Shown here piece after piece: positions 1,211 through 22,043 of a stretch of DNA of 22,175 nucleotides (position 1 is its first letter; each line of letters begins with the position of its first letter). The notes beneath the pieces are model-generated. The model was given only the letters and a program-made list of their open reading frames with translations. It was not told the DNA's origin and ran no database searches. The position numbers were made by a program, and so were the translations under genes. Source of the DNA: Candidatus Yonathbacteria bacterium CG17_big_fil_post_rev_8_21_14_2_50_43_9 (GTDB lineage Bacteria; Patescibacteriota; Minisyncoccia; Phycocordibacterales; UBA1550); assembly GCA_002771015.1 (NCBI GenBank), contig PCUO01000005.1, positions 180-22,354 on the forward strand, written 5' to 3'.

Positions 1211-1388
1211 CGCCTAACTTCACCGTCCGTTTCGAAAAACAGGCGATTAAGTTAGGTCTTGGTCACAAGTAACCCTTCTTGTGAGGGAGTTCCTTTTTGA
1301 GATAGGAGAACCATTATCTTAATTCCTTGCGGAAAAAACCGACCAATTCATTATACGCTTGACTACGAGAGCCAATGGTACATTTTAT

Positions 1389-1402
1389 ATTTTGAATTGA
1401 TT
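1389..1402 (-). other. 16S 3' tail lacking the anti-Shine-Dalgarno
   Basis: After helix 45 (CACGGCUAGC-GGAA-GCUGGUCGUG, ten pairs including G-U) the RNA reads AAUCAAUUCAAAAU. E. coli has GGAUCACCUCCUUA at the same place. The AUCA survives, and CCUCC is replaced by AUUCA. No CCUCC follows within the next 40 nt. Confidence 0.85.
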
Positions 1403-1756
1403 CACGACCAGCTTCCGCTAGCCGTGCCTTGTTACGACTTAGTCCTTGTTACCATGCTTACCTTAAGCCCAGACTAGCTGGGATTTCGGGTACTCACGGC
1501 TCCCCTGACTTGACGGGCGGTGAGTACAAGACTTGAGAACGTATTCACCGCGGTATAGCTGACCCGCGATTACTAGCGATTCCAACTTCATGAGGTCGAG
1601 TTTCAGCCCTCAATCCGAACTGGGGCCACCTTTATTAGGATTAGCTCAGAGTTACCTCGTCGCGACCCGTTGTAGTGACCATTGTATCAAGTGTGCAGCC
1701 CAGGGTATCAAAGGGACATGCTGACCTGGCGTCATCCTCTCCTTCCTCCCCCGCCA

Positions 1757-1889
1757 CAACGCGCTTCACTTACGTTGAATTTCAAATTTCAAATTTTTAA
1801 ACAAATTCTTCTAATTTCTTAATTTAAGAATTAAAACATTATTTAAAAATTAAAAATTTTACATTTATAATTCCGCACGAAGTGCGCTC
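1757..1889 (-). other. Insertion in 16S helix 39 (about 133 nt)
   Basis: It is closed by a perfect stem CCCCCGCCA (1748-1756) / TGGCGGGGG (1890-1898). The interior is extremely AT-rich apart from a small hairpin CGCAC-GAA-GTGCG, and it can fold into a long AU stem (TTAAAAATTT with AAATTTTTAA). It has no open reading frame. It may be excised as an intervening sequence or kept as a helix expansion; the sequence alone cannot say which. Confidence 0.75.
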
Positions 1890-2655
1890 TGGCGGGGGCA
1901 GTCTCGTCTGACACGTATAACAGACAACGAGGGTTGCGTTCGTTGACCCACTTAAGGGGACAGTTCAAACCACGAACTGACGACGGCCATGCATCACCTG
2001 CTCATAAGTCCTTGCGGAGTTACCTAGTTTCTTAGGTCTTTCCTATGAGTTTCAAACCCTGGTGAGGTTCTTCGTTTACCATCGAATTAAGCCACCTGAT
2101 CCACCGCTTGTGCAAGTCCCCGTCTATTCCTTTGAGTTTTAACCTTGCGGTCGTACTTCCCAGGCGGATATCTTAACGCGTTAGCTGTGCCACTCAGAGG
2201 GTCGATACTCCGAATAGCTAGATATCATCGTTTAGGGCGTAGACTACTGGGGTATCTAATCCCATTCGCTACCTACGCTTTCGTATTTCAGCGTCAGAAA
2301 CGCGCCAGTTTGCTGCCTTCGCTTTTGGTGTTCCCCATGATATCAACGGATTTCACCCCTACACCATGAGTTCCGCAAACCTCTCGCGCCCTCTAGTTAT
2401 GCCGTTTCTCCCGCAATTCTCCGGTTGAGCCGAAGGCTTTGACAAAAGACTAACATAACAACCTACATACCCTTTACGCCCAATAATTCCGGATAACGCT
2501 TGGGGTACTCGTATTACCGCTGCTGCTGGCACGAGTTTAGCAACCCCTTATTCATGTAGTACTATCAAAACTTTCTCCTACATAAAAGATCTTTACATCC
2601 CGAAAGACTTCATCAATCACGCGGCGTCGCTCCGTCAGACTTGCGTCCATTGCGG

Positions 2656-2686
<31 letters not shown>

Positions 2687-2922
2687 ATGGTCCGTGTCTC
2701 AGTACCATCGGTGGAGGTCAGCCTCTCAGCTCTCCTAAGCGTCATTGCCTTGGTAGGCCATTACCCTACCAACTAGCTGATACTGCACAGGCCAATCCCA
2801 AAGCGATAAATCTTTACCCTTGCGGGACCATCAAGTATTAGCCTACCTTTCGGTAGGTTATTCCTGACTCTGGGGTTTGTACCTATGTATTACTACCTCG
2901 TTCGCAACTCCGAGCACCACTT

Positions 2923-2991
2923 CAGCTCCAATCACTTCTCATTAAAATAGATTTTTAAAACTTTAACCTTAAACTGAGAAAATTAGAAACA
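2923..2991 (-). other. Insertion in 16S helix 6 (about 69 nt)
   Basis: A perfect 13-bp stem, CCGAGCACCACTT (2910-2922) / AAGTGGTGCTCGG (2992-3004), encloses an AT-rich loop. The outer ten bases of the stem are identical to those of a 23S insertion (19095-19170) and of the 23S leader hairpin (22062-22085). Confidence 0.8.
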
Positions 2992-3092
2992 AAGTGGTGC
3001 TCGGCGTTCTACTTGCATGCCTTATCCACGCCGCCAGCGTTCATCCTGAGCTAGGATCAAACTCTCTTAAAAAGAGCGTTTAATTAACTCTC

Positions 3093-3603: not shown

Positions 3604-3632
3604 TTGGCATTTTATCAAAACAGATATATAAT
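3604..3632 (+). promoter_or_regulatory. Promoter giving a leaderless mRNA
   Basis: TTGGCA (3604-3609), a 17-nt spacer, TATAAT (3627-3632), then exactly 6 nt to ATG 3639. The predicted start site falls on the start codon. Confidence 0.8.
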
Positions 3633-3638
3633 TAATAA

Positions 3639-3938
3639 ATGAATGAAAACCTAAGCAACCAGCAACTCAAACATGAACATAGTCACATCCCTATGGAGAA
3701 GGTGCGAACGGAACCACAATTTGAGAATTACACTCAAAAAACAGAGCATTTTTTTAAAATTGATAAGCAAATCGATAACAAAAAAAGAGAGCTGGGAACC
3801 GTTGCGCAGGAAAGTGTGGAAAAACCAACAGCATCAAAAGATGCTTACACAAAACTTATGGGTATAGTTAAGGCCGAAATTAAAGAGTTGGAGCTCGAAA
3901 AAGAAAGGATGATGCATCCCAAAAAAACAATTTACTAA
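3639..3938 (+). CDS. Hypothetical hydrophilic helical protein, 99 aa
   Basis: A cytosolic, highly charged protein with no membrane segment. Its second half is Lys/Glu-rich and probably coiled-coil (KIDKQIDNKKREL..., then IVKAEIKELELEKERM). I recognise no family. The start is well fixed: a near-consensus promoter ends 6 nt before the ATG, no SD is present, and there is no room for a leader. The gene stands alone, back to back with the 16S promoter and followed 19 nt after the stop by a strong terminator. It could be a small scaffolding or RNA-binding protein, but nothing in the sequence proves that. Confidence 0.75.
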   Translation: MNENLSNQQLKHEHSHIPMEKVRTEPQFENYTQKTEHFFKIDKQIDNKKRELGTVAQESVEKPTASKDAYTKLMGIVKAEIKELELEKERMMHPKKTIY

Positions 3939-8018: not shown

Positions 8019-8360
8019 TCATTGAGTAGTACTAAGTGGGATTGATTGAATAAGCTTCGCTTGTTCCTCAGCTGTTATGGTAGTTTTCTTAGGGATACTT
8101 TTTACCAATTGGCTTTTCTCTGCTTGAGTCATTGTATCTTTTGGAATTGCCTGTACCATTTCCGCAATCTGTTTTTCTTGCGCTATTTGCGCTTGAGTTT
8201 TGACTGGCAAGGAAGCATTTTCCTCTTGCAATGGTAGTGGGATATCTTTTTGCATAAAAAGATATCCCAGAGCAGATGCTAACCCAACCAAAACAACGAC
8301 CGCCGCGATTATTAAAAACTTCCTCTTGATAGAAACTGGTATTGTGATTTCTGGTTCCAC
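8019..8360 (-). CDS. Single-span membrane protein with a repeated helical tail, 113 aa, GTG start
   Basis: A short charged N-terminus (VEPEITIPVSIKRK) precedes one membrane helix at about residues 15-34 (FLIIAAVVVLVGLASALGYL). The rest is hydrophilic and contains three related segments: QIAEMVQAIPKDTMTQAE, QLVKSIPKKTTITAEEQ and KLIQSIPLSTTQ. These are internal repeats of the form (Q/K)-h-(V/I)-x-(S/A)-I-P. The GTG start is set by a TATACT box 6 nt upstream. Topology is N-in, C-out. The family is unknown. It lies directly upstream of the secreted protein gene, so the two may work together at the surface. Confidence 0.7.
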   Translation of the reverse strand: MEPEITIPVSIKRKFLIIAAVVVLVGLASALGYLFMQKDIPLPLQEENASLPVKTQAQIAQEKQIAEMVQAIPKDTMTQAEKSQLVKSIPKKTTITAEEQAKLIQSIPLSTTQ

Positions 8361-8366
8361 TGTTTA

Positions 8367-8395
8367 AGTATACCCCCACACCTGCTTTTTGTATA
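8367..8395 (-). promoter_or_regulatory. Promoter of a leaderless GTG-start mRNA
   Basis: TATACA (8395-8390), a 17-nt spacer, TATACT (8372-8367), 6 nt to the GTG at 8360. Confidence 0.7.
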
Positions 8396-17055: not shown

Positions 17056-17081
17056 CACTTTTTTCCGATTGAATCCTTAGT

Positions 17082-17187
17082 TCTGGCGGCAAGCTACTTT
17101 CCCCTTGCGAGTATCATCGCCGCAACTGCGCTTAACTTCTGAGTTCGGAATGAGATCAGGTGTGACCACAGCGCCAAACCACCAGAA
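17082..17187 (-). rRNA. rrf: 5S ribosomal RNA
   Basis: The minus strand reads CTGGTGGTTTGGCGCTGTGG at the start and carries the conserved CCGAACTCAGAAGTTAAGC core, ending CTTGCCGCCAG. The ends pair as helix I. Flanking sequences CGATTGAAT and ATTCAATCG extend the stem for processing. The length is about 106 nt, slightly short but normal. End coordinates are approximate. Confidence 0.93.
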
Positions 17188-17500: not shown

Positions 17501-17720
17501 ATTTTCAAATTCCCACCAGGAATCGGCGTATTAGTACTCCTCTGCTGAAACGATTACTCGTCTTACACATAGAGCCTATCAACGTAATCATCTCTTACGG
17601 GCCTCAAACGAATTCTGATCTTGGGGTTGGCTTCCCTCTTAGATGCTTTCAGAGGTTATCCATTCCCGACATAGCTACGCTGCGGTGCCCTTGGCAGGAC
17701 AGCAGCCACACCAGAGGTCA

Positions 17721-17751
<31 letters not shown>

Positions 17752-17896
17752 ATCCCCTCAAAATTCAACGCCTGCAGAAGATAGGAGACCAACCTGTCTC
17801 ACGACGGTTTGAACCCAGCTCACGTATCTTTTTAATTGGCGAACAGCCAAACCCTTGGAAGCTTCTCCACCTCCAGGATAAGATGAGCCGACATCG

Positions 17897-18265
17897 CTGT
17901 CGTATTTGTCTCGCATTACTGCGAGGATCGGACTATATCTTCACCCTCTCGATCAAAAGAGGCGTTGGCGTATTAGCTATGATTTTCTCATAACTCCGTC
18001 ACTTTGTTAGTTGCATCTCTACGCGCTAACGTGACAAGTCTCTACAGGGTTATACGTATAATCACATCCACAAAGGATGTAGCAGCTCTCTAAAAATTTA
18101 GAGTGATCGCTTTCTTACACGCAAACTTCCCACGGTATTGCCCATTTATTGTTCATGCAAATGGGTTTCACCGTTATAAGCCAAGATTTCTTGTTTATAT
18201 ATTATTTATTGACGATTATAAATTTGTCGCTACAGGATTACTCCTGACGCACCCCGATTATGTTA
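17897..18265 (-). ncRNA. Group I intron in 23S at E. coli position 2500
   Basis: This 369-nt intron interrupts the peptidyl transferase region after U2500. P1 is exact: exon GCACCU with intron GGGUGC, ending in the required U-G pair, and P10 is intron AUCG with 3' exon CGAU. The intron ends in G. Core elements are present: P3 UUGGC/GCCAA, the CAAUACCGUGGGAAG block, the P7/S element GAAGAUAUAGUCC, P8 CCUCU/AGAGG, P9 CUCGCA-GUAA-UGCGAG, and a P7.1/P7.2-like pair of hairpins (AGUUAUGA-GAAA-UCAUAGCU) that suggests subgroup IA. It encodes no homing endonuclease. Confidence 0.9.
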
Positions 18266-18835
18266 AGGTGCCGAACTCTGCCGTCGATATGAACTCTTGG
18301 GCAGAACTAGCCTGTTATCCCCGTGGTAGCTTTTATCCGTTAATCTTCGACCGCATCTAAAGCGTGTCGTCGGTTCACTATGCTCTGCTTTCGCACCTGC
18401 TCGACATGTCCGTCTTGCAGTTAAGCCCTCTTTTGCCATTACGCTATCGGCACGGTTTCCATTCGCGCCTAGAGGACCTTAATAGACTCCTCCGTTACCT
18501 TTTAGGAGGAGAGCGCCCCACTCAAACTACCCGCCAAATACTGTCTCCGTAAGTTTTTTCCTTACAGATTAGAACATGCCTCAATTAAGGGTGGTATTTC
18601 ACTGTTGGCTCGACGACCACCGAAACGGTCGCTTCAAAGCCTCCCACCTATGCTACGCAGAAACAAAACATGTTCAATATTAAGCTATAGTAAAGCTCAC
18701 GGGGTCTTTTCGTCTATCTGCAGGTAACCGGCATCTTCACCGGTATTGTATTTTCACCGAGCTGCTTCTCGAGACAGTTTCCCACTCATTACGCCATTCG
18801 TGCACGTCTGAACTTACCAGACAAGGAATTACGCT

Positions 18836-19038
18836 CAACTATTCCTCTCAGTTGGACTCTATCTTTACCCTCTTCCTTAAAAGTAGGGTCCATGACGTTG
18901 GTCTCTCGTTTATCATGATTGGACTAACACACATTACTGCGTGCCAGGTAGCTTAAACATGTAATGAATTTAAATTAATTGTTTACTTTTTTCTATAACA
19001 GTCCTAGTCCTTCCCTGCTCATCATTGATAAGCAGGGA
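18836..19038 (-). ncRNA. Small group I-like intron in 23S at E. coli position 1931
   Basis: A 203-nt insertion splits CCUAAGGU | AGCGUAAUUCC just after helix 69. The upstream exon ends in U and the insert ends in G, as group I requires. Near its 3' end it carries AGAGGGUAAAGAUAGAGUCC, almost the same as AGAGGGUGAAGAUAUAGUCC of the intron at 2500 (P8 and S element). P1 is not clear. The insert opens with a 13-bp hairpin (19012-19038), followed by a 14-nt complement of the upstream exon (18993-19006 with 19043-19056). It is short for a group I intron, and the class is probable rather than certain. Confidence 0.65.
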
Positions 19039-19073
<35 letters not shown>

Positions 19074-19106
19074 CAGGGCTTATACAAGCCAGCACCGAGC
19101 ACCATG

Positions 19107-19158
19107 CTTTCAAATAGAACCACTGAACAAAAATATTCAACGAAATTCTACTTAACTT
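19107..19158 (-). other. Insertion in 23S helix 68 closed by the shared stem
   Basis: CCGAGCACCATG (19095-19106) / CATGGTGCTCGG (19159-19170) encloses 52 nt of AT-rich sequence. The stem continues outward by G-U pairs. Its first ten bases equal those in 16S helix 6 and in the 23S leader. Confidence 0.8.
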
Positions 19159-19318
19159 CATGGTGCTCGGCACCACCCGTATTTAACCTTCTGGCATTGG
19201 TCAGGCGTCACCCCATATACATCCTCTTACGAGTTCGCATGGAGCTGTGTTTTTGGTAAACAGTTGGCAGGAAATCTTTCGCTGCGGCCTCCACCACTTT
19301 ATTTTCAAAGCGGTGCTA

Positions 19319-19473
19319 CATCATTTCTCATAAAATGCTTCGCTTAGCTTCAGGGAAATTTCTAGCGAGACGAAGAGAAAAATTTGACTCGAACCGAGGT
19401 TCGAATAAAATTTTTCTCAAAGTCACAGCAGAAATTTACTGATGATATGCGAAATGATTTTTGAGAGATGATG
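19319..19473. repeat. Repeat family B, copy 2, inside the helix 63 insertion
   Basis: The outer arms CATCATTTCTCA (19319-19330) / TGAGAGATGATG (19462-19473) continue into partly paired sequence. The core at 19366-19440 resembles 3187-3270 (GCGAGACGAA, AGAAAAATT, TTTCTCAAAGTC, GCAG). Confidence 0.65.
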
Positions 19474-19765
19474 TCTAAGTCCTAGAAAAATTAGTCAACA
19501 TTTTTGTATTTGATACGATCTATGATTATGAGTTTCATAGAATGGAGAGAGTTCATGGTTAACCTTCGAATCGATCTAATTACGATCTTTTAGTCTATGC
19601 GGTTTCCCGTCTGACAAGATTATTCAAAGAAATAGTGGATGGTAGCACCCAACGAAGTTGACACCTGAGTGTCGTTTGATTCTTGCGAATCTTATCTTCT
19701 CTATTTAAATCCAGAATCCCCCCTCTACGAAACCCACAATCACTCACTTTCTCAAATACTTTTTT

Positions 19766-19795
19766 GTGTTTAGTATCAGCTCTGATACTAAACAC
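19766..19795. repeat. Perfect 14-bp inverted repeat in the helix 63 insertion
   Basis: GTGTTTAGTATCAG-CT-CTGATACTAAACAC. Confidence 0.9.
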
Positions 19796-19963
19796 GGTCT
19801 CGATACACTCAATTCTTCGGACTCCATCACTATTGCATAAGCATTGATTAAATTGCTTTAGTTGCGAGGCGGGGAGAATTTTTTACGACCAAGATGTACA
19901 AGTGTACATTGCGTGGAGGAAAAAATTCTTCTCAACGATGCAAATAAAAGCAGGGTTACCTCT

Positions 19964-20033
19964 TATATTAGCTCCTCGGCTTGGAAATGAAAAAATACCT
20001 TTTCATTTCTCTCGCTCTACGTCGCTAATGAAG
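19964..20033. repeat. Repeat family A, copy 2, inside the helix 63 insertion
   Basis: Matches 6837-6907 at both ends (TATATTAGCTCCTCGGCT ... TCTCTCGCTCTACGTCGC). The middle differs by a few bases. Confidence 0.75.
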
Positions 20034-20713
20034 TAATTTTATCTATGCGTCTTTAAAGACAAAGTGGTGGAGGCAAGCCTTATCCCGAAGTTACGGCTGC
20101 TTTTTTGCCGAGTTCCTTGAGAAGCAATCACTCGTTCGCCTTAGTCTACTCGACTCGAGCACCTGTGTCGGTTTTAGGTACGGTTTTTTATTTGTTATGC
20201 TTAGAAGCTTTTCTCGGAAAATTGCTTTGCCTTATCTGCACTGGGCGAACCCATGCATTTCTGCTTCACTTGCGGTCGGTATTAAAACCAGACTCCCGGA
20301 TTTACCTAAGAGTCACACTGATGACACAAACGCAAATCCAATAATGCGCAAGACATACTAACCTTCGTCACTCCATCGCACAAATAAAAAGTTAGGGAAT
20401 ATTAACCCTATGTCCATCGGCTTCAGCTTTCGCTATAACCTTAGGCCCGACTAACCCTTCGCTGATCAACATCGCAAAGGAAACCTTGCTCTTACGGCGT
20501 GCGGGGATCTCACCCGCATTGTGGTTACTTGTGCCAACATTCTCACTTCATGCCGCTCCAGAGTTGCTCACACTTCTCCTTCAGCGCAGACATGAACGCT
20601 CTCCTACCGCTCCAGTCACCCTACGGGCGACCAGAACCCTCAGTTTCGGTACTACGCTTAGTCCCGATTATCTTCGGTGCAGAGTCTCTTAGTGAGTGAG
20701 CTGTTACGCTTTC

Positions 20714-20745
<32 letters not shown>

Positions 20746-20885
20746 TCACTGTCTGAGAAACTCCACCTCCTTAAGTACACTTAGCGTAAATTTTGGGACC
20801 TTAACTTGAGATCAGGGCTGTTTCCCTTTTGACCGACGGAGCTTCGCCCCCGTAGTCTTACTGCCTAGTATTTGGGCCCACCACA

Positions 20886-21016
20886 CAACAATCTTTTCTG
20901 CTACAACTTAAAATTTTTGCTACAAATCATTCATCGCTCGTCGCCTATGCTCGCATAGGCTCATCACGCTTCATGATTTCCGCTAAAAATTTTCGTTTCG
21001 CAACGAAAAATTATTA
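20886..21016 (-). other. 131-nt insertion in 23S domain II
   Basis: Closed by GGCCCACCACA (20875-20885) / TGTGGTGGGCC (21017-21027). It holds nested hairpins (GCCTATG-CTCG-CATAGGC, TTTTCGTT-TCGC-AACGAAAA) and a family B core at 20909-20994 on the minus strand. Confidence 0.8.
20909..20994 (-). repeat. Repeat family B, copy 4, inside the domain II insertion
   Basis: On the minus strand it reads AAAATTTTTAGCGGAA...AAGC-TGA...CGACGAGCGATG...TTTGTAGCAAAAATTTT, aligning from end to end with 11895-11978. Confidence 0.65.
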
Positions 21017-21478
21017 TGTGGTGGGCCTATCTCTGGTATTCGGAGTTTGATAGGACTGACGAGATTGCTCCCTGTTCAGTCCTTCCAGTGCTCTACCCCC
21101 AGAGGGTACGCTAGACGCTATGCCTAAACATATTTCGGAGAGAACCAGCTATTACCAGATTCGATTAGCTTTTCACTCCTTACCACAAGTCATCCGATGG
21201 TGTCGCACGGCCAACCGGTTCGGGCCTCCATCTGTATTTCTACAAACTTCACCCTGCTCATGGTAAGCTCATCTGGCTTCGGGTCTAATGCATACAACAA
21301 ACGCGCTATTCACACTCGGTTTCCCTAAGGCTCCACCCGACAAGGGCTTAGCCACGCTGTATACATTAACTCGTTGGCTCATTCTTCAATAGGCACGCCG
21401 TCACCCCCCACCACGAGTGGTGGGGGGCTCCGACTCCTTGTAAGCATATGGTTTCAGTTCTATTTCACTCCCCTCACC

Positions 21479-21523
<45 letters not shown>

Positions 21524-22043
21524 TTCTAAGAGTATTTAGCCTTACCAGTTAGTTCTGGTAGATTCCCCCGAGCTATTCGTGTCTCGAAGTACTCAAGAAC
21601 AAAGACAAAGAAGATGTAAGGTTTTCGTTTACTGGGCTATCACCGTCTAGGGCTATGCTTTCCAGCATATTCAACTAACATTACATTTTGTAACTCCTCT
21701 CGTATAAATACGACGTCTCTGCCTTACAACCCCTACTATAAATAGTAGGTTTGGGCTATTTCCGTTTCGCTCGCCGCTACTCAGGAAATGTTCCGCCATT
21801 CGGCGGCTTTTTTTATTTTCCTCCAGGTACTGAGATGTTTCACTTCCCTGGGTATACTCCTACATTTAAATGTAGGTCATAACCTATTACGGTTATGGGG
21901 TTTCCCCATTCAGAAATCTCCGGATCAAAGGTTGCTAGGCACCTCCCCGAAGCTTATCGCAGCCATGCTACGTCTTTCATCGCCTCTTAGAACCAAGGCA
22001 TCCACCATATGCTCTTATATTTCCTGTTAGGAAATTTAAAAAC

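What the first reader, a model, noticed from the sequence alone, without database searches (positions are those of the whole stretch)
1389..1412. 16S rRNA without an anti-Shine-Dalgarno sequence
Helix 45 is intact, with ten pairs and the GGAA loop that KsgA methylates in other bacteria, and the following AUCA is conserved. The next six bases are AUUCAA instead of CCUCCU. No CCUCC occurs in the following stretch that could be taken as the mature tail. Loss of this element from an otherwise normal 16S gene is rare among free genomes and would mean that the ribosome cannot use SD pairing.
Basis: partly seen in the sequence, partly recalled or inferred. Interest (0 to 1): 0.9.

Follow-up and report, generated by a model that had tools for sequence, protein, structure and literature searches.

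The report
Bacterial order without anti-Shine-Dalgarno sequence
The ribosomal RNA in this tiny uncultured bacterium really lacks the short sequence that most bacterial ribosomes use to find the start of genes; nearly all relatives that could be read in its order lack it too, and their genes carry signs that many messages begin directly at the start codon.

Summary
The 16S gene (3072..1390, minus strand) has a normal helix 45 followed by AAUCAAUUCAAAAU, no CCUCC, and is the only 16S found in the genome. It is not an isolated mutation. The window belongs to the genus of Candidatus Yonathbacteria (Parcubacteria). In its order 145 of 150 listed tail rows (143 genomes) lack CCTCC; the five others look foreign. 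In the rest of the class 48 of 129 read genomes keep CCTCC; outside it 117 of 131. On a 16S tree the sampled order is one aSD-less clade; 'lost' needs at least 6 changes, 3 forced by well-supported branches. SD-like words are not enriched before starts in eight aSD-less genomes (48/616 vs 40.3±5.7 shuffled) but are in nine CCTCC genomes of other classes (120/566 vs 64.3±6.2). Instead a TATAAT-like box peaks 12 bases before the start (84/616 vs 17.4 per position), the mark of leaderless mRNAs. Best reading: clade-wide loss of SD initiation, with leaderless and other SD-independent starts. RNA-level proof is missing.

The parts
1390..3072 (-). 16S rRNA gene, full length, with AT-rich extra sequence
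   Evidence: RF00177, 1330.6 bits, model 1-1533/1533
1403..1426 (-). helix 45: ten pairs with GGAA loop (site of the KsgA dimethylation in other bacteria, recalled)
   Evidence: read directly; KsgA homologue present at G000:C5:12618-13397
1389..1402 (-). 16S 3' tail AAUCAAUUCAAAAU in place of GAUCACCUCCUUA; no anti-SD
   Evidence: same tail start in six further genomes of the genus
1393..1401 (-). 5' arm (AUCAAUUCA) of a predicted stem that would cover the tail in the precursor
   Evidence: eight pairing columns invariant in 12 sequences, so no covariation support; window fold z -0.8
1342..1350 (-). 3' arm (UGAAUUGGU) of the same predicted precursor stem
   Evidence: prediction only
3627..3632 (+). 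TATAAT at -12..-7 of the ORF starting at 3639: example of the leaderless signature
3639..3938 (+). small hypothetical ORF whose start would coincide with the transcription start
8367..8372 (-). TATACT at -12..-7 of the GTG-started ORF 8360..8019: second example

Best explanation
This lineage of Parcubacteria has lost the anti-Shine-Dalgarno sequence from its only 16S rRNA and does not start translation by SD pairing. The loss is old and shared by the order; related families of the class show further, partly separate, erosion. Translation starts are found in other ways. A sizeable share of genes (roughly 30% by the motif model, inferred) has its promoter -10 box 12-13 bases before the start codon, so that the mRNA would begin at or next to AUG and could be bound directly by the ribosome (leaderless initiation). 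The remaining genes, including those inside operons, would rely on AUG in A-rich, weakly folded surroundings, possibly with bS1, IF3 and bS21, which are kept. Because CCUCC-bearing Patescibacteria already show the leaderless signal and often weak SD use, SD-independent starting probably came first and let the anti-SD decay. Shown: the tail, its spread, the lack of SD enrichment, the box position. Inferred: leaderless mRNAs, the order of events, the ribosome's mechanism.
For: Tail and single copy. Order: 145 of 150 listed tail rows lack CCTCC. Class and phylum gradient. 16S tree without helix 45 and tail: sampled order one clade (21 rows, SH-aLRT 100), all lost; 'lost' needs at least 6 changes, 3 forced by starred branches (79-row version: 11 and 7). 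SD-like words: 48/616 vs 40.3±5.7 in eight aSD-less genomes; 120/566 vs 64.3±6.2 in nine CCTCC genomes of other classes; E. coli 15/35 vs 6.4±2.1. Leaderless signature: TANNNT at -12 in 84/616 starts vs 17.4 per background position, 39.2 expected from single-position letters, and 33/3237 at internal ATGs; motif search within -26..-2 gives TATAATAA peaking at -12; TTG at -35/-34 in 12%/8% of the 84 genes with the box, 2%/1% of the 532 without. The criterion (TANNNT about 12 bp upstream = leaderless) is that of PMC3160421 (passages).
Against: No RNA data: neither the mature 16S 3' end nor any transcription start is mapped. Only 84 of 616 starts (14%) carry a strict TANNNT at -12, so most genes are not shown to be leaderless. 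The signal is of similar strength in several CCTCC-bearing relatives, so it does not by itself explain why the anti-SD was lost in this order; it is weak in some genomes (z at -12: aSD-less G385 2.3, eroded G176 0.6, CCTCC G100 1.2, G601 0.6, G527 1.3). Two CCTCC genomes of the class (G164 z 0.8, G242 z 0.5) show no SD enrichment either, and two aSD-less ones show a weak excess (G041 z 2.0, G302 z 2.4), so SD use and tail state are not tightly coupled genome by genome. Weak folding round starts goes with lower G+C there and is also seen in CCTCC genomes and E. coli. Genes were called by a simple ORF script; miscalled starts dilute both signals. Sampling was partial (about 198 kb of 638 kb for G000, 80-120 kb for the other genomes).
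Confidence: 0.75

Rival explanations
1. The anti-SD is lost, but most initiation is on leadered, SD-less mRNAs chosen by low structure, A-rich context and bS1; leaderless mRNAs are a minority and play no special part in the loss. (Overlaps in part with the best explanation.)
For: Only 84 of 616 starts have a strict TANNNT at -12; windows round the start are weakly folded; plausible bS1 homologues in 37 of 38 genomes (the best match of G058 lies in a 738-aa frame and looks like another S1-domain protein); A-rich -11..-2 region in G000. Lim et al. suggest an A-rich-leader mechanism for Flavobacteria (PMC3522020, whole text).
Against: The sharp peak at -12 with a -35-like TTG at the right distance shows that leaderless-type promoters are a real class and not a small one.
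Confidence: 0.35
2. The new tail pairs with a new, complementary leader motif (a replacement SD/anti-SD pair). The tail is conserved as UAWUUCAA across the order, which would fit selection for pairing.
For: Tail positions U-U-C conserved in 128, 141 and 130 of 145 rows. G051 has an excess of 5-mers complementary to its own tail (20 vs 8.0, z 4.4) and G041 a weak one of 4-mers (z 2.0).
Against: In the other six aSD-less genomes own-tail words are not raised (z 1.2 or less) and in G017 and G385 5-mers are depleted (z -3.3, -2.0). The G051 excess comes from scattered words at scattered positions, several promoter-like (ATACT, TTGAC).
Confidence: 0.07
3. Artefact: assembly error, missed second 16S copy, or a tail restored by splicing from elsewhere.
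For: MAG data, 41 contigs, 94% complete; insertions and introns occur in these rRNA genes.
Against: The same state in 142 of the 143 order genomes listed (G284 showed only a foreign-looking copy), including single-contig genomes (G017, G302). TGGATCACCTCCTT (up to 1 mismatch) found at the 16S in 22 of 22 CCTCC controls; in 15 aSD-less genomes never at the 16S, with hits elsewhere in five of them, one exact.
Confidence: 0.03
4. The tail is added or changed after transcription (editing or untemplated addition).
For: None found; not searched for beyond the sequence.
Against: No SD enrichment for such a tail to pair with.
Confidence: 0.02

Closest known systems
Bacteria without an anti-SD: insect symbionts, hemotropic mycoplasmas, some Flavobacteriia (Lim et al. 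2012, meeting abstract PMC3522020 read whole; Amin et al. 2018, PMC6107228, passages)
   Same: Helix 45 kept, CCUCC gone, no SD motifs upstream of genes, found in related groups.
   Different: Those papers report 15 genomes and 128 taxids; the text and passages seen name no Patescibacteria. Here an order and much of a class share the loss, with a conserved new tail and a leaderless promoter signature.
Leaderless-rich bacteria (Actinobacteria, Deinococcus-Thermus; PMC3160421, passages)
   Same: TANNNT box about 12 bases before the start codon.
   Different: I recall that those groups keep CCUCC and SD-led genes as well (from memory, not tested here).
Bacteroidetes with hidden anti-SD (Flavobacterium johnsoniae; mechanism recalled, title seen among references; PMC6847099 seen in a listing)
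   Same: SD motifs hardly used although the ribosome is bacterial.
   Different: There CCUCC is present and held by ribosomal proteins; here it is absent.
SD-scarce archaea without CCUCC (Nanoarchaeia; PMC10783764, passages)
   Same: Loss put down by those authors to leaderless mRNAs.
   Different: Archaeal ribosome and promoters; the term 'patescib' does not occur in that paper's held text.

Membership tests
anti-SD-less bacteria (Lim 2012 / Amin 2018 criteria) | 16S with intact helix 45 whose 13-base tail has no CCUCC | tested here: met
anti-SD-less bacteria (Lim 2012 / Amin 2018 criteria) | no other 16S copy with CCUCC in the genome | tested here: met
   one 16S; no 14-mer; genome 94% complete
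anti-SD-less bacteria (Lim 2012 / Amin 2018 criteria) | SD-like motifs not enriched upstream of genes | tested here: met
   G000 9/161 vs 11.6±3.1; control E. coli 15/35 vs 6.7±2.1
anti-SD-less bacteria (Lim 2012 / Amin 2018 criteria) | loss shared by close relatives | tested here: met
leaderless-rich bacteria (PMC3160421 criterion) | TANNNT signal concentrated about 12 bp before the start codon | tested here: met
leaderless-rich bacteria (PMC3160421 criterion) | transcripts begin at the start codon | not testable with these tools
   needs transcription start mapping
Bacteroidetes-type hidden anti-SD | CCUCC present in 16S but held by ribosomal proteins | tested here: not met
   CCUCC absent
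replacement SD/anti-SD pair | leader motif complementary to the new tail | tested here: not met
   G000 4-mers z 0.5, 5-mers z 0.1 (G051 of the order is an exception, z 4.4)

The most novel reading that the evidence does not exclude
In a whole order of Parcubacteria the anti-SD has been replaced by a conserved new 3' element (GGAWYAWUUCAA, often able to form a small hairpin) that serves something other than mRNA pairing, for example 16S 3'-end maturation or a ribosomal-protein site, while the ribosome has become specialised for leaderless and SD-independent starts; that is, a large natural clade of bacteria in which SD initiation is extinct.
Probability: 0.45. Interest if true: 0.85.

Novelty: new variant of a known kind. 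Interest (0 to 1): 0.75.

Why it matters
CCUCC is among the most conserved stretches of bacterial rRNA. A large clade without it, flanked by relatives with intact and half-eroded forms, gives a natural series for asking what the anti-SD is needed for, in which order SD motifs and anti-SD disappear, and how a bacterial ribosome starts on leaderless mRNA. It also bears on practice: gene callers that score SD motifs, and 16S models that end in CCUCC, may misplace starts and 16S ends in a very large group of uncultured bacteria, and SD-based expression or genetic tools would not be expected to work in them.

Tried and rejected
(1) Assembly error or second copy: rejected. (2) Replacement pairing between new tail and leaders: tested with own-tail words; rejected for the window's genome and as a general rule, with G051 (5-mers z 4.4) left as an exception that involves promoter-like words. 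(3) Loss of bS21 alongside the anti-SD: the Pfam bS21 profile rang in 7 of 15 aSD-less genomes against 10 of 13 CCTCC class genomes and 8 of 10 of other classes, which looked like decay; a profile from ten Paceibacteria sequences then found bS21 in 14 of 15 and 13 of 13 (ten of these 28 genomes had supplied its rows, of the other aSD-less ones 7 of 8 were found), so this was profile sensitivity and the idea was dropped. (4) Precursor stem over the tail in the genus: 8 pairs invariant in 12 sequences, no covariation, window fold z -0.8: not supported beyond prediction. (5) The mini-hairpin in order tails: 51 of 107 distinct tails have a Watson-Crick stem of at least 4 pairs, shuffles mean 11.2, largest 19 of 200; the window genus lacks it locally; function unknown. 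(6) The first tree of 79 rows (three of 82 chosen rows were too short) held intron-cut and long-branch rows; repeated with 59 rows after dropping 20; both are reported. (7) Literature: ten searches showed no paper describing anti-SD loss in Patescibacteria among the listed results; four of them listed only 15 to 20 of 30 to 452 papers; most subscription papers and all preprints are outside the library, and Tsurumaki et al. 2022 on CPR ribosomes is not held.

Full report
What is there. The minus strand of the window carries a full-length 16S gene, 3072..1390. Its 3' end reads ..AACAAGG-CACGGCTAGC-GGAA-GCTGGTCGTG-AATCAATTCAAAATAT. Helix 45 is intact; the 13-base tail that in E. coli is GAUCACCUCCUUA (PMC6107228, passages) is AAUCAAUUCAAAA. 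The genome G000 has one 16S match, and the 14-mer TGGATCACCTCCTT with one mismatch allowed does not occur in it.

Who it is. A scan of named genomes for a tail pattern found 16 contigs, six of them titled Candidatus Yonathbacteria. Contig lengths tie three of these to genomes of the window's genus: MHUT01000019.1 (15,148) = G005:C19 and MHUY01000040.1 (20,682) = G007:C40, DMXP01000006.1 (91,326) = G013:C6.

How far it reaches. RF00177 was searched in 61 genomes (44 with a match). Of the 30 loci returned, 27 tails (the window's included) were read at once and two more from looser matches; none has CCTCC. A pattern covering helix 45 and the tail matched 170 of 217 genomes of the order; the listing was cut at 150 rows from 143 genomes. 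Of these rows 145 lack CCTCC. The five rows with CCTCC (G170, G270, G284, G325, G376) have a helix 45 of another type; four of these genomes also hold an aSD-less copy, G284 has only this one match; I take them for contaminants but did not place them. In the class outside the order 129 genomes could be read: 48 CCTCC, 18 CTCC only, 6 TCC/CTC, 57 neither; of 62 families 22 have some CCTCC and 28 only bare tails (the second, also CCTCC, rows of G125 and G143 were not counted). In other classes 117 of 131 listed genomes have CCTCC and 14 have variants such as CATCTCC (that listing too was cut at 150 rows; I left out the G472 row and one G421 row, which do not look like 16S, and a second CCTCC row of G570). 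Genomes without a match to the pattern (47, 51 and 69 in the three searches) are not counted.

Tree. 16S genes cut before helix 45 were used: 79 rows, then 59 after leaving out 20 short or long-branched rows. In the second tree the order's 21 rows form one aSD-less clade (SH-aLRT 100) inside a larger group of 31 rows (SH-aLRT 92) with only lost or CTCC tails; outgroup and early branches of the class have CCTCC. The state 'lost' needs at least 6 changes, 3 of them forced by well-supported branches (first tree: 11 and 7). So there was an old loss that includes the window's order and there were others; changes back cannot be excluded by counts alone.

SD use. ORFs of 90 codons or more were called by script in sampled stretches of 23 Patescibacteria and 50 kb of E. 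coli K-12; only ATG starts were used. SD-like words (GGAG, GAGG, AGGA at -20..-3) against shuffled windows: G000 9/161 vs 11.6±3.1; eight aSD-less genomes pooled 48/616 vs 40.3±5.7 (z 1.4); three CCTCC genomes of the class 37/224 vs 27.2±4.1 (z 2.4); two eroded ones 25/136 vs 20.7±3.7 (z 1.2); G563 with CATCTCC 12/70 vs 7.9±2.4 (z 1.7); nine CCTCC genomes of other classes 120/566 vs 64.3±6.2 (z 8.9); E. coli 15/35 vs 6.4±2.1 (z 4.0). Genome by genome the coupling is loose: two aSD-less genomes have a weak excess (G041 z 2.0, G302 z 2.4), two CCTCC genomes of the class none (G164 z 0.8, G242 z 0.5), and in other classes G446 has a strong one (z 7.5) while G523 and G610 have none.

What replaces it. 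TANNNT peaks at exactly -12 from the start codon: G000 27 of 161 against 4.4 per background position; pooled 84 of 616 against 17.4. It is not a side effect of A+T-rich flanks: 39.2 are expected from the single-position letters, and internal in-frame ATGs show 33 of 3237, 1.0%, against a background of 1.4%. A motif search within -26..-2, started from random words, gives TATAATAA peaking at -12 in the aSD-less genomes and TAAGGAAA at -14 in the small E. coli set. In genes with the -12 box TTG is raised at -35/-34 (12% and 8% of 84) against 2% and 1% of 532 genes without it, the spacing of a sigma-70 promoter. By the rule of PMC3160421 (passages) this marks leaderless genes. From the motif model about 30% of starts have the box at -12 or -13; this is a rough estimate. 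In the window, 2 of 13 inspected starts have the strict box at -12. The signal is also present in CCTCC-bearing relatives (21 of 224 against 4.1 in the class, 61 of 566 against 17.7 in other classes), so it is probably older than the loss; it is weak in G100, G176, G527 and G601.

Tail and ribosome. The order's tails keep a new consensus GGAWYAWUUCAA (U, U, C at 128, 141, 130 of 145 rows), and 51 of 107 distinct tails can form a hairpin of at least 4 pairs against 11.2 in shuffles. Words complementary to the own tail are not enriched before genes, G051 excepted. The bS1 model matches 38 of 38 genomes, none over the curated cut-off, and in G058 probably another S1-domain protein; IF3 37 of 38; KsgA 34 of 38, 32 over the cut-off; bS21 14 of 15 aSD-less genomes by a tuned profile. 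A survey of CPR ribosome biogenesis says that the 3' terminus of 16S was often not fully annotated, that era is mostly missing in Paceibacteria and other classes, and calls YchF, linked to leaderless translation, broadly conserved (PMC12641178, passages). That fits, and may be why the loss could be overlooked.

Judgement. The finding is real, larger than stated, and of a known kind (anti-SD loss) at an unusual scale, with a leaderless signature. The loss itself I hold at about 0.95, the account of how translation starts at 0.75. All functional steps need RNA or ribosome data.

Noticed in passing
window 1390-3072, 17081-17186, 17511-22030: rRNA genes are unlinked: 23S and 5S lie about 14 kb from the 16S gene, all on the minus strand.
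   Followed up: no
window 17511-22030: The 23S gene spans 4520 bases against a model of 2925; a group I intron match lies at 17909-18235.
   Followed up: no
window about 1775-1880: AT-rich insertion of roughly 100 bases inside the 16S gene, of unknown kind (read).
   Followed up: no
L027 and matched rows of G019, G034, G044, G057, G275, G287, G324, G354, G382: Nine genomes read TGAACAAGG instead of GTAACAAGG just before helix 45, which suggests a recurrent intron site there.
   Followed up: no
G170, G270, G284, G325, G376: A 16S tail of foreign type with CCTCC, probably contamination by other organisms in these genomes; four of the five also hold an aSD-less copy.
   Followed up: partly
other classes, family f220 and others: Anti-SD erosion (CATCTCC, ACTTCC, ACCGCC) also occurs outside the class, in 14 of 131 listed genomes.
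   Followed up: partly
G051; G302, G123, G143, G601; G058: Near-complete genomes with no IF3 match (G051), no KsgA match (G302, G123, G143, G601), and no long bS1 and no bS21 match (G058).
   Followed up: no
G020:C2:115284-115297: An exact TGGATCACCTCCTT away from the 16S gene in an aSD-less genome; no helix 45 match there; probably chance.
   Followed up: no
eight aSD-less sets: The base before the start codon is T in 42-68% of starts, as at a pyrimidine-purine transcription start; values in CCTCC genomes of other classes spread wider (28-71%).
   Followed up: partly
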